Positions 21,440 through 24,283 of a stretch of 56,196 nucleotides of DNA are shown piece by piece. Source of the DNA: Hydrogenophilaceae bacterium (GTDB taxonomy: Bacteria > Pseudomonadota > Gammaproteobacteria > Burkholderiales > Thiobacillaceae). Location: contig JACAEC010000034.1 of the NCBI GenBank assembly GCA_013389055.1, positions 1 to 56,196 of the forward strand. The letters run 5' to 3'. The translations under genes were made by a program, and so were the position numbers. Positions within the stretch are counted from its first letter, which is position 1; each line of letters begins with the position of its first letter. The notes beneath the pieces are model-generated. The model was not told where the DNA came from. It did not search any database and saw only the letters and a program-made list of their open reading frames with translations.

Positions 21440-22957
21440 ATGTGCGGGATACTCGGGGTCGTCTCCCACCAGCCCGTGAACCAGTTGTTGTACGACGGCC
21501 TGCAGTTGCTGCAGCATCGCGGCCAGGACGCGGCCGGCATCGTCACCGTCGACGGCAACATGTTTCACATGCACAAGAACAATGGCATGGTGCGCGATGT
21601 CTTCCGCACCCGTGACATGCGCAACCTCATGGGCAATGCCGGCATCGCCCATGTCCGCTATCCGACCGCCGGCAGCGCCGACAGCTCGGCCGAGTCGCAG
21701 CCGTTCTACGTCAATTCGCCGTTCGGCATCGTGCTCGGCCACAACGGCAACCTGACCAATACCGAGCAGTTGCAGGAGGAGATCTTCCGCCAGGACCTGC
21801 GCCACGTGAACACCGGTTCCGATTCCGAGGTGCTGCTCAACGTCCTGGCCCATGAACTCAATGCCGCGGTGAAGGACCACCGCCTGACCAAGGAAGCGGT
21901 GTTCACGGCGGTGGCCAATGTCCATCGCCGCTGCCGGGGCGCCTATGCCGTGGTCGCCATGATCGCCGGCTTCGGCCTCTTGGCCTTCCGCGATCCGCAG
22001 GGCATCCGTCCCCTGATCTTCGGCAAGCTGGAAAGCGAGGCGGGCACCGAGTGGCTGGTCGCCTCGGAGAGCGTGGCGCTGGACGCCCTGGGTTTCAGCA
22101 CGGTACGCGATGTGCAACCGGGCGAGGCGATCCTGATCACCCTCGACGGCCAGTTCGCCAATTGCGCCTGCATCGAAAAGCCGATCTTCACCCCCTGCAT
22201 CTTCGAGTATGTCTACTTCGCCCGGCCGGATTCGGTCATCGACGGCATCTCGGTCTACGAGAGCCGCCTGCGCATGGGCGAGCGCCTGGCCGAGAAGATC
22301 AAACGCGAGTACAGCTACCTGGACATCGACGTGGTGATCCCGATTCCGGACACCAGCCGGCCCAGCGCCCTGCAACTGGCCAACCGCCTGGGCATCGACT
22401 ATCGCGAGGGCTTCATCAAGAATCGTTACATCGGCCGCACCTTCATCATGCCGGGGCAGGGCGTGCGCAGGAAATCGGTGCGTCAGAAGCTCAACGCCAT
22501 GGCCATGGAATTCAAGGGCAAGAACGTGCTGCTGGTGGACGATTCCATCGTGCGCGGCACCACCAGCCGCGAGATCATCCAGATGGCCCGCGATGCCGGC
22601 GCCAAAGCGGTGTATTTCGCCTCGGCCAGCCCGCCGGTGCGCTTCCCCAACGTCTATGGCATCGACATGCCGACCCGGGCGGAACTGCTGGCCACCGGCC
22701 GCACCGACGCAGAGATCGCTATCGAGATCGGGGCCGATGCCGTGATCTACCAGGACCTGCCCGATCTGATCGCAGCCGTGCAGCAGCTCAACCCGAAAAT
22801 CACCCGTTTCGATGCCTCCTGCTTCGACGGCAATTACGTCACCGGCGACATTACCGAGGAATACCTGGCCCGCCTGGAGGCCGAGCGCAGCGGCGTGACG
22901 CCGGTGGTGGCCTCGCCGCCGACCCGGCAGATGCATCTGAACCTCAATGCGGCTTGA
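21440..22957 (+). CDS. purF: Amidophosphoribosyltransferase
   Basis: Makes 5-phosphoribosylamine from PRPP and glutamine, the first committed purine step. The 505-residue protein starts MCGILGVV, so Cys2 becomes the N-terminal nucleophile after Met removal. The glutaminase block has [10 protein letters not shown] and HNGNLTN; the phosphoribosyltransferase domain has the PRPP loop [17 protein letters not shown]. It ends the long operon: just after its stop there is a separate promoter and riboswitch serving metZ. Confidence 0.98.
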
Positions 22958-22960
22958 GCG

Positions 22961-22989
22961 TTGACAGGCCGTTAGGGCCGGAGTAGCTT
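22961..22989 (+). promoter_or_regulatory. Predicted sigma-70 promoter for metZ
   Basis: A perfect -35 TTGACA (22961-22966) begins four bases after the purF stop. A 17-nt spacer follows, then TAGCTT (22984-22989) as -10. The expected transcript start (about 22996) falls right at the first stem of the SAM-II-like aptamer, which supports both calls. Not experimentally shown. Confidence 0.7.
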
Positions 22990-22994
22990 TGGTT

Positions 22995-23046
22995 CTGCGC
23001 CGATTTGAGAACAGCTTGCGGGCGCGTTACAAATACCGCTAAAGCG
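22995..23046 (+). ncRNA. SAM-II-like riboswitch aptamer upstream of metZ
   Basis: The short RNA has the SAM-II layout. P1 pairs GCGCC (22997-23001) with GGCGC (23021-23025). The loop begins with the conserved GAUUUG (23002-23007) and contains CUUGC (23015-23019). A linker with ACAAA follows, then the conserved GCUAAAG (23038-23044). CUU can pair with AAG and GC with GC, leaving UA unpaired, which is the SAM-II pseudoknot pattern around the ligand. SAM-II RNAs are best known upstream of metA, metX and metZ-type genes in alphaproteobacteria; here the next gene is metZ. An intrinsic terminator follows, suggesting that S-adenosylmethionine lowers transcription into metZ. The match was made from memory of the consensus, not by a covariance model. 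Confidence 0.82.
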
Positions 23047-23051
23047 TGGCA

Positions 23052-23097
23052 AAAAACCCGTTTTGGCAGCGCAAGCGCAAAACGGGTTTTTGTTTTT
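23052..23097 (+). terminator. Intrinsic terminator between the SAM-II-like aptamer and metZ
   Basis: A perfect 14-bp stem (23052-23065 with 23078-23091) is capped by a small inner hairpin with a GCAA tetraloop at 23071-23074. A U-rich tract runs to 23097. It ends about 11 nt before the metZ ATG, just ahead of its GGGGA ribosome-binding site, so metZ expression needs read-through. It is the natural expression platform for the upstream aptamer. Confidence 0.85.
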
Positions 23098-23107
23098 GGG
23101 GATTGCC

Positions 23108-24283
23108 ATGACCGACGATTACGAACTCGAGACCCTGGCCGTGCGGGCCGGCACCGTGCGCAGCCAGTTCCACGAGCATTCCGAGGCGATGTTCCTCACC
23201 TCCAGCTTCGTGTTCGACAGCGCGGCCCAGGCGGCGGCGCGTTTTTCCGGAGCCGAGCCGGGCAACATCTACGCCCGCTTCACCAACCCGACGGTATCGA
23301 TGTTCGAGCAGCGGCTGGCCGCCCTGGAAGGGGCCGAGCGCTGCGTCGCCTTCGCCTCCGGCATGGCCGCCATCCTGGCCACGGTGATGGGGCTGATGAA
23401 GGCGGGCGAACACATCGTCGCCTCGCGCTCGATCTTCGGCTCCACCGTGCAGTTGTTCAGCAACATCCTCGGCCGCTTCGGCATCGAGACCACCTATGTC
23501 TCGCCGACCGATCCCGAGGAGTGGCGCCACGCGGTCAAGCCGAACACCCGGCTGTTCTTCGTCGAGTCGCCGTCCAATCCGCTGACCGAGGTGAGCGACA
23601 TCGCCGCCCTGGCCAAGATCGCTCACGAGTCGGGCGCCTGGCTGGCGGTGGACAACTGCTTCTGCTCGCCGGCCCTGCAGCAGCCCTTGAAGTTGGGCGC
23701 CGACATCATCATCCACTCGGCCACCAAGTATCTCGATGGCCAGGGCCGGGTGTTGGGTGGCGCGGTGCTCGGCAGCAAGGAGTTGATGGAGGGGGTCTAT
23801 ACTTTCCTGCGCACCGCGGGCCCGACCCTGTCCGCCTTCAACGCTTGGGTGCTGCTCAAGGGCCTGGAGACCCTGAGCCTGCGCATGGAGGCGCATTCCC
23901 GCCATGCCCTGGAACTGGCGACCTGGCTGGAGGCGCAGCCCAAGGTCGGCCGCGTGCTCTATCCGGGCCTGCCTTCGCATCCGCAGCATCAACTGGCCAT
24001 GCAACAGCAGAAGACCGGCGGCGGCATCGTCGCCTTCGAGGTGGTCGGCGGCAAGGACGGCGCCTGGCAGGTGATCGATTCGACCAAGCTGCTGTCGATC
24101 ACGGCCAACCTGGGCGACGCCAAGACCACCATAACCCATCCGGCCACCACCACCCACAGCCGGATGACCCCGGAGCAGCGGTCGGCGGCCGGCATCGGCG
24201 ACGGTCTGATCCGCATCGCGGTCGGCCTGGAGGCGGTGGCCGACCTCAAGGCCGACCTCGCGCGCGGGCTCGATCGCCTATGA
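23108..24283 (+). CDS. metZ: O-succinylhomoserine sulfhydrylase
   Basis: A PLP enzyme of the Cys/Met metabolism family that makes homocysteine directly from O-succinylhomoserine and sulfide. The 391-residue protein has the PLP lysine at 207 in HSATKYLDGQ. Other blocks are YARFTNPTV, FASGMAAI and SPSNPLTEV, with the C-terminal THPATTTHSRM. The purF-metZ adjacency and the N-terminus (DYELETLAVRAGTVRSQFHEHSEAMFLTSSF, read in parts) fit MetZ better than MetB or MetC. The start at 23108 follows GGGGA; longer frames would run through the terminator. It is probably controlled by the upstream SAM-II-like element. The next gene overlaps its stop. Confidence 0.94.
   Translation: MTDDYELETLAVRAGTVRSQFHEHSEAMFLTSSFVFDSAAQAAARFSGAEPGNIYARFTNPTVSMFEQRLAALEGAERCVAFASGMAAILATVMGLMKAGEHIVASRSIFGSTVQLFSNILGRFGIETTYVSPTDPEEWRHAVKPNTRLFFVESPSNPLTEVSDIAALAKIAHESGAWLAVDNCFCSPALQQPLKLGADIIIHSATKYLDGQGRVLGGAVLGSKELMEGVYTFLRTAGPTLSAFNAWVLLKGLETLSLRMEAHSRHALELATWLEAQPKVGRVLYPGLPSHPQHQLAMQQQKTGGGIVAFEVVGGKDGAWQVIDSTKLLSITANLGDAKTTITHPATTTHSRMTPEQRSAAGIGDGLIRIAVGLEAVADLKADLARGLDRL

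What the first reader, a model, noticed from the sequence alone, without database searches (positions are those of the whole stretch)
22961..23110. SAM-II-type riboswitch with its own promoter and terminator in front of metZ in a betaproteobacterium
Three elements fit together in 150 nt. The first is a TTGACA-17-TAGCTT promoter starting right after the purF stop. The second is an aptamer with GCGCC/GGCGC P1, GAUUUG, CUUGC, ACAAA and GCUAAAG blocks, with pseudoknot pairing CUU-AAG and GC-GC around an unpaired UA. The third is a 14-bp intrinsic terminator ending about 11 nt before the metZ start. SAM-II is known mainly from alphaproteobacterial metA/metX/metZ-type leaders, so a terminator-coupled example between purF and metZ here would extend its range. 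It also explains how metZ escapes the long upstream operon.
Basis: partly seen in the sequence, partly recalled or inferred. Interest (0 to 1): 0.78.

Follow-up and report, generated by a model that had tools for sequence, protein, structure and literature searches.

The report
SAM-II riboswitch in front of metZ
The stretch before the methionine gene metZ is very probably a SAM-sensing RNA switch with its own promoter and stop signal; it belongs to a known kind, seemingly already described in this group of bacteria under other names, and a divergent relative sits before the SAM-synthetase gene of the same genome.

Summary
Confirmed: window 22987-23059 matches Rfam SAM-II (SAM_alpha) at 38.3 bits, cut-off 36, between purF and metZ. 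A promoter lies at 22961-22989 (spacing kept in 28 of 30 loci), a terminator at 23052-23091. The P2 3' strand GCUAAAGCG (23038-23046) can pair with the terminator's 5' arm (23059-23067) as an antiterminator that a locked P2 would exclude. Likely action: high SAM stops transcription before metZ.

The range is not new: SAM-II with terminators in betaproteobacteria was reported in 2007 (PMC2258182). The 2014 'metXZ element', listed before Thiobacillus denitrificans metZ (PMC4239095), is probably this element; Rfam Bp2_287 lies antisense to it (5 of 5 loci). The window's relatives are Thiobacillus-type bacteria.

Fresh: Rfam's cut-off passes 28 of 339 class genomes, a model built here matches in 181 of 369 (samples differ). 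A divergent SAM-II-like element precedes metK in the same genome, with no Rfam SAM_alpha match. Upstream of metZ, 49 of 80 relatives show no match. Ligand binding was not tested.

The parts
21440..22957 (+). purF, amidophosphoribosyltransferase (upstream gene; stop codon 22955-22957)
   Evidence: NCBIfam TIGR01134 528.6 bits, cut-off 350
22961..22966 (+). -35 hexamer TTGACA
   Evidence: TTGAC-N18-TA kept in 28 of 30 loci
22984..22989 (+). -10 hexamer TAGCTT (3 of 6 consensus bases); start of transcription inferred near 22996
   Evidence: not reported by the generic scan
22987..23059 (+). SAM-II (SAM_alpha) aptamer as matched by Rfam
   Evidence: 38.3 bits, E 3.5e-7
22997..23001 (+). P1 5' strand GCGCC
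   Evidence: P1 covariation
23002..23009 (+). L1 block GAUUUGAG
   Evidence: GAUUUGA invariant or nearly so in the 31-row alignment
23015..23019 (+). P2 5' strand CUUGC
   Evidence: invariant in the 31-row alignment; pseudoknot partner of 23038-23044
23021..23025 (+). P1 3' strand GGCGC
23038..23046 (+). P2 3' strand GCUAAAG plus CG; also the proposed antiterminator strand
23059..23067 (+). CGUUUUGGC in the terminator 5' arm, 9 continuous pairs (2 of them G-U) with 23038-23046: proposed antiterminator
   Evidence: -11.7 kcal/mol, p 0.003 against shuffled anchors, p 0.055 against shuffled targets
23052..23091 (+). intrinsic terminator hairpin, 16 pairs with one bulge; U-rich run to 23097
23098..23101 (+). 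probable Shine-Dalgarno GGGG
   Evidence: by eye
23108..24283 (+). metZ, O-succinylhomoserine sulfhydrylase (391 aa)
   Evidence: NCBIfam NF006003 722.4 bits, cut-off 522

Best explanation
A SAM-II riboswitch controls metZ by transcription attenuation. RNA polymerase starts just after purF at a dedicated promoter (supported by conservation; the start site near 22996 is inferred). When SAM is plentiful it would bind the aptamer (inferred from family membership) and lock GCUAAAG (23038-23044) into the P2 pseudoknot with CUUGC (23015-23019). The terminator (23052-23091) then folds and metZ is not transcribed; a leader RNA of about 100 nt would be released (inferred). When SAM is low, GCUAAAGCG is free and pairs with CGUUUUGGC (23059-23067) in the terminator's 5' arm, an antiterminator predicted to be the best fold while transcript ends lie between about 23064 and 23084, which would give polymerase time to pass. 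The energies make it a kinetic switch: once the 3' arm is complete the terminator is the best fold in both states.
For: SAM_alpha match over the cut-off. P1 covariation: 5 of 6 pairs with changes on both sides among 92 distinct sequences; 98.4% of cells of P1+P2 paired, slid controls at most 51.6%. P2: the core hardly varies, but a pair that adjoins it, which I picked after seeing the alignment, reads AU 16, GC 13, UA 2, GU 1 and unpaired 4 of 36 rows. Model R1, made only from family sequences, also finds elements that Rfam scores at 60.5-67.4 bits: 6 of the 12 phylum-search loci that I gave to Rfam. Promoter spacing kept in 28 of 30 loci. Antiterminator: appears on folding the partial transcript; GCUAAAGCG pairs better than with shuffled targets in 30 of 80 distinct terminator leaders at p<=0.05, where 4 are expected, and better than shuffled anchors in 30 of 80; of 34 leaders with duplexes of -8 kcal/mol or better, 33 place the partner in the terminator arm or loop. 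The 80 are related to one another, so these are not independent trials. metZ belongs to methionine synthesis.
Against: No ligand-binding or expression data. In 50 of 80 terminator leaders the antiterminator pairing is not significant, among them all 11 tested from the largest sister genus, g10, so the switch may work differently there; the window's own p against shuffled targets is 0.055. The P2 core shows no double changes, so covariation does not test it. The P2-locked fold excludes the antiterminator by construction. The equilibrium fold has a terminator with or without P2. 49 of 80 MetZ relatives show no match upstream of metZ, 4 of them with under 100 nt of upstream sequence, so the control is dispensable.
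Confidence: 0.85

Rival explanations
1. A SAM-II riboswitch that acts mainly on translation or RNA stability, with a terminator that is not switched and only sets a low basal level, as reported for S. meliloti metA.
For: The equilibrium fold of the complete leader always contains the terminator; for S. meliloti metA the terminator was not predicted to be affected by SAM (PMC9373788, passages and section 5); the best fold of the 150-nt leader pairs 23046-23052 with 23103-23109, over the start codon.
Against: The P2 3' strand has a 9-pair complement inside the terminator arm here, a pairing that recurs in other leaders (30 of 80).
Confidence: 0.1
2. A plain promoter plus terminator between purF and metZ, with a decaying or non-functional aptamer.
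For: Some relatives have decayed copies: L161 keeps promoter and terminator without most of the aptamer, L187 lacks GCUAAAG, L139 is split by an insertion.
Against: In the window the conserved blocks are intact and the match is over the Rfam cut-off; 29 of 80 loci carry full-length copies.
Confidence: 0.03
3. A small RNA encoded on the opposite strand (Rfam RF02424, Bp2_287).
For: RF02424 aligns to the minus strand 23092-22964 with 25.4 bits, far below its cut-off of 70.
Against: The 5 RF02424 matches in 41 order genomes lie antisense to an R1 match, 5 of 5; the part of its consensus shown holds reverse complements of the SAM-II blocks; the promoter and metZ are on the sense strand. The source paper suggested a cis-acting element of methionine metabolism (PMC3521395, section 17).
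Confidence: 0.02

Closest known systems
SAM-II / SAM_alpha riboswitch, Rfam RF00521
   Same: P1, L1 and P2 blocks, methionine gene downstream, match over the cut-off
   Different: Shorter than the Rfam consensus where its 3' pairing lies (gaps of 2 and 4 nt in the alignment); in this family only 3 of 117 genomes are over the Rfam cut-off although 33 match at E<=1e-3
metXZ RNA element of betaproteobacteria (Leyn 2014, PMC4239095)
   Same: Pseudoknot of conserved blocks followed by a terminator, before metX or metZ, named for Thiobacillus denitrificans metZ; a T. denitrificans locus has our element at that place (L192)
   Different: Presented there as new and not linked to SAM-II in the passages read; their guess at an antiterminator used conserved regions 3 and 4. 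Their alignment (Figure S2) was not available to me
S. meliloti metZ SAM-II riboswitch (Scheuer 2022, PMC9373788)
   Same: SAM-II before metZ with a terminator; gives an sRNA of about 100 nt
   Different: Alphaproteobacterium
Rfam RF02424 Bp2_287 (Khoo 2012, PMC3521395)
   Same: Covers the same kind of leader; purF, metZ and metX among its neighbours
   Different: Modelled on the opposite strand and listed as an sRNA
Tandem SAM-II riboswitches (PMC9481103, passages)
   Same: Several relatives carry two copies, the first with a terminator, the second close to a start codon (e.g. L016, L007)
   Different: The window has a single copy

Membership tests
SAM-II (RF00521) | Covariance-model match over the curated cut-off | tested here: met
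   38.3 against 36 bits
SAM-II (RF00521) | Helix P1 supported by covariation | tested here: met
   5 of 6 pairs with double changes, 0 of 500 shuffles as high; weaker within the 33 matches from named MetZ loci (3 of 6 pairs; score reached by 38 of 500 shuffles)
SAM-II (RF00521) | Pseudoknot helix P2 | tested here: inconclusive
   98.1-99.6% of cells paired but no double changes in the core pairs; an adjoining pair chosen after the fact covaries in a variant-rich set
SAM-II (RF00521) | Ligand-contact positions (listed as U10, U11, A20, U21, U22, U46, A47, A49 in PMC11508383, passage) | tested here: inconclusive
   The GAUUU, CUUGC and GCUAAAG blocks are intact, but the mapping of the crystal numbering onto them is from recall; by it A20 reads C here
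SAM-II (RF00521) | Precedes a methionine or SAM biosynthesis gene | tested here: met
   metZ
SAM-II (RF00521) | Binds SAM and discriminates against SAH | not testable with these tools
   needs probing of the RNA
metXZ element (Leyn 2014) | Same position and architecture in Thiobacillus denitrificans | tested here: inconclusive
   Element found before metZ in L192; the published alignment was not seen, so identity is by place and description
RF02424 Bp2_287 | Match over its cut-off of 70 bits on the sense strand | tested here: not met
   25.4 bits, opposite strand

The most novel reading that the evidence does not exclude
Betaproteobacteria carry a large branch of SAM-II that Rfam mostly fails to call, in two forms that can share one genome: a terminator-type switch before metZ/metX, and a divergent, probably ribosome-site-type switch before metK whose L1 reads GAGUUAA in place of GAUUUGA, a change at or next to a ligand contact (mapping from recall). 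The metK form may have a shifted affinity or ligand choice, and would close the feedback loop on SAM synthetase in a group where metK was stated to have no known methionine regulator (PMC4239095, passages).
Probability: 0.5. Interest if true: 0.55.

Novelty: new member of a known kind. Interest (0 to 1): 0.38.

Why it matters
The window's element is ordinary for its group. The gain is in bookkeeping and one lead: three separately named things (SAM-II in betaproteobacteria, the 'metXZ' element, Rfam Bp2_287) appear to be one riboswitch; the Rfam cut-off under-reports it; its antiterminator can be written down and tested; and a divergent copy before metK would add feedback control of SAM synthesis where, in the one survey whose passages I read, none had been assigned.

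Tried and rejected
Range extension: rejected on the literature. Antisense sRNA: rejected. Antiterminators through the P1 3' strand (CGGG with CCCG of the terminator arm) or through GCUUGCG with CGCAAGC of the terminator loop were considered by eye; the loop match is missing in other lineages shown there and CCCG seemed too common in terminators to judge, so neither was tested; the P2 3' strand gave the clear signal. The third R1 match in the own genome (19.5 bits, L093) lies inside a long open reading frame and was taken as chance. A background of other terminators of the genome was planned as a control but could not be made, so shuffles served instead. Dropped rows: of 113 leaders found by my rule, 23 had no terminator by that rule and were left out, and the other 90 held 80 distinct ones; at least L005 and L008 show a hairpin by eye that the rule missed. 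In one search, L130 was left out of the 30 named loci with an R1 match for want of upstream sequence, and the window added. Novelty of the joined identity and of the metK form rests only on searches of open-licence papers and on the passages read; most subscription papers were not searchable.

Full report
What is there. The gap between purF (stop 22955-22957) and metZ (ATG 23108) holds a promoter-like pair of hexamers, a SAM-II aptamer and an intrinsic terminator. Rfam SAM_alpha matches 22987-23059 at 38.3 bits, cut-off 36, E 3.5e-7, the only match over the cut-off in the genome, a draft of 221 contigs, 94.9% complete and 5.64% contaminated. metZ is O-succinylhomoserine sulfhydrylase (NF006003, 722.4 bits). 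The generic promoter and terminator scan found neither; its limits on the -10 match and the loop length probably explain that.

Relatives. Of 117 family genomes, 33 have a SAM_alpha match at E<=1e-3 and 3 are over the cut-off. Thirty-one aptamers from 30 loci were aligned and made into model R1. With it 303 of 399 order genomes, 181 of 369 class genomes and 52 of 299 phylum genomes have a match at E<=1e-3; its E-values are rough and the weakest matches may be false. In the class, Rfam's own model gives 112 of 339 at E<=1e-3 and 28 of 339 over the cut-off; the two samples overlap but are not identical, and R1 also picks up the metK form below. All of R1's training sequences came from the window's family. 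Of 12 loci from the phylum search that I gave to Rfam (27 loci were newly fetched there), 6 score 60.5-67.4 bits as SAM_alpha, 4 score 34.1-35.8, and 2 (L109, L112, the metK form) have no SAM_alpha match.

Structure. On 100 matches (92 distinct) P1 shows changes on both sides in 5 of 6 pairs, and 98.4% of P1+P2 cells are paired against at most 51.6% when slid. The alignment was fitted to P1 by R1, which favours it. The P2 core has no double changes there. In a second set of 36 distinct rows, a pair adjoining P2 that I added after seeing the alignment reads AU 16, GC 13, UA 2, GU 1, unpaired 4; over that whole structure 0 of 500 shuffles reach the covariation score, 4 of 500 the number of pairs with double changes and 307 of 500 the number of pair types. 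Within the 33 matches from named MetZ loci P1 covariation is weak (3 of 6 pairs; covariation score reached by 38 of 500 shuffles).

Switch. Folding the transcript step by step, the free RNA pairs GCUAAAGCG (23038-23046) with CGUUUUGGC (23059-23067) while its end lies between about 23064 and 23084; with the P2 strands held unpaired it cannot, by construction. At 23088 the terminator is best in both cases. Across 80 distinct terminator leaders 30 show this pairing at p<=0.05 against shuffled targets and 30 against shuffled anchors; the window scores p 0.055 and 0.003. Of 26 distinct leaders from class loci L062-L091, 19 have GCUUUAG or GCUUUGG in the stretch up to the terminator loop, a complement of the P2 strand; these loci were the best-scoring R1 matches, not a random draw. 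Fifty of 80 do not show the pairing significantly, among them all 11 tested from sister genus g10.

Promoter. Of the window and 29 related loci with the element, 28 of 30 have TTGAC-N18-TA upstream; in 3 of them (L192, L136, L164) it lies about 12 nt further from the aptamer.

Loss in relatives. Of 80 MetZ loci from titled records, 29 have a full-length R1 match upstream of metZ, 1 a truncated match (L187), 1 a match split by an insertion (L139) and 49 none; of the 49, L134, L149, L176 and L185 have under 100 nt of upstream sequence. In 20 of 80 the PurF end motif lies within 27 nt of metZ, so hardly anything is left between the genes; 15 of 80 could not be measured. L161 keeps promoter and terminator without most of the aptamer. 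Many of the record titles name Thiobacillus or Hydrogenophilales; T. thioparus DSM 505 (L144) and T. denitrificans RG (L192) have the element.

Literature. Seen as passages: PMC2258182, PMC2704228, PMC9481103, PMC12452182, PMC2864571, PMC11508383, PMC6914780, PMC13273304, PMC4035088. Passages and sections: PMC4239095, PMC3521395. Abstract, passages and a section: PMC9373788. SAM-II with terminators in betaproteobacteria dates from 2007. The 2014 'metXZ' element, in 35 betaproteobacterial genomes and named for T. denitrificans metZ, fits ours by place and description. Khoo 2012 describes Bp2_Cand287 with purF, metZ and metX among its neighbours; its Rfam family RF02424 matches in 5 of 41 order genomes, none over its cut-off, 5 of 5 antisense to an R1 match. 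No paper listed was seen to state that these are one element; that is a limited search, mostly of listings.

metK form. R1 finds a second element in the own genome, 36.2 bits, E 1.5e-7, before metK, with an SAH riboswitch further down. A model R2 built from 11 metK leaders matches 215 of 300 order genomes at E<=1e-3, but this includes ordinary SAM-II such as the window's own (45.9 bits). Of its 30 best loci 17 have the MetK motif just downstream by a strict test; 8 of the 17 are training sequences, so 9 are independent, and 13 of 30 lack the motif (L224 and L230 look like MetK by eye). None of 9 R2 loci scanned has a SAM_alpha match at the gathering score, nor has L092 at E<=1. L1 reads GAGUUAA in most of them, and a stretch that could mask the Shine-Dalgarno sequence (e.g. 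CUGCUC against GGAGCAG) is visible by eye in several, which suggests control of translation; this was not tested.

Verdict. Very probably a genuine SAM-II riboswitch, a new member of a known kind, with a specific and testable antiterminator; the claim of extended range fails; the metK form is the lead worth following.

Noticed in passing
L092 1501-1555 (own genome G000:C94:4017-4071): Divergent SAM-II-like element before metK with L1 GAGUUAA and a shortened joining segment; no Rfam SAM_alpha match. Similar leaders before metK in other families of the order.
   Followed up: partly
L092 2817-2893: SAH riboswitch downstream of metK in the same contig, 59.8 bits.
   Followed up: no
L016, L007, L048, L077, L082, L087 and others: Tandem SAM-II copies, the first with a terminator, the second without one by my rule and close to a start codon; the type is known (PMC9481103, passages).
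   Followed up: partly
window 22964-23092, minus strand: Rfam RF02424 (Bp2_287) appears to model the reverse strand of this kind of leader; 5 of 5 matches in 41 genomes are antisense to R1 matches.
   Followed up: yes
   Followed up: no
L135, L138, L139: Insertions of roughly 270-330 nt between aptamer and terminator (L135, L138) or inside the aptamer (L139), judged from match positions.
   Followed up: partly
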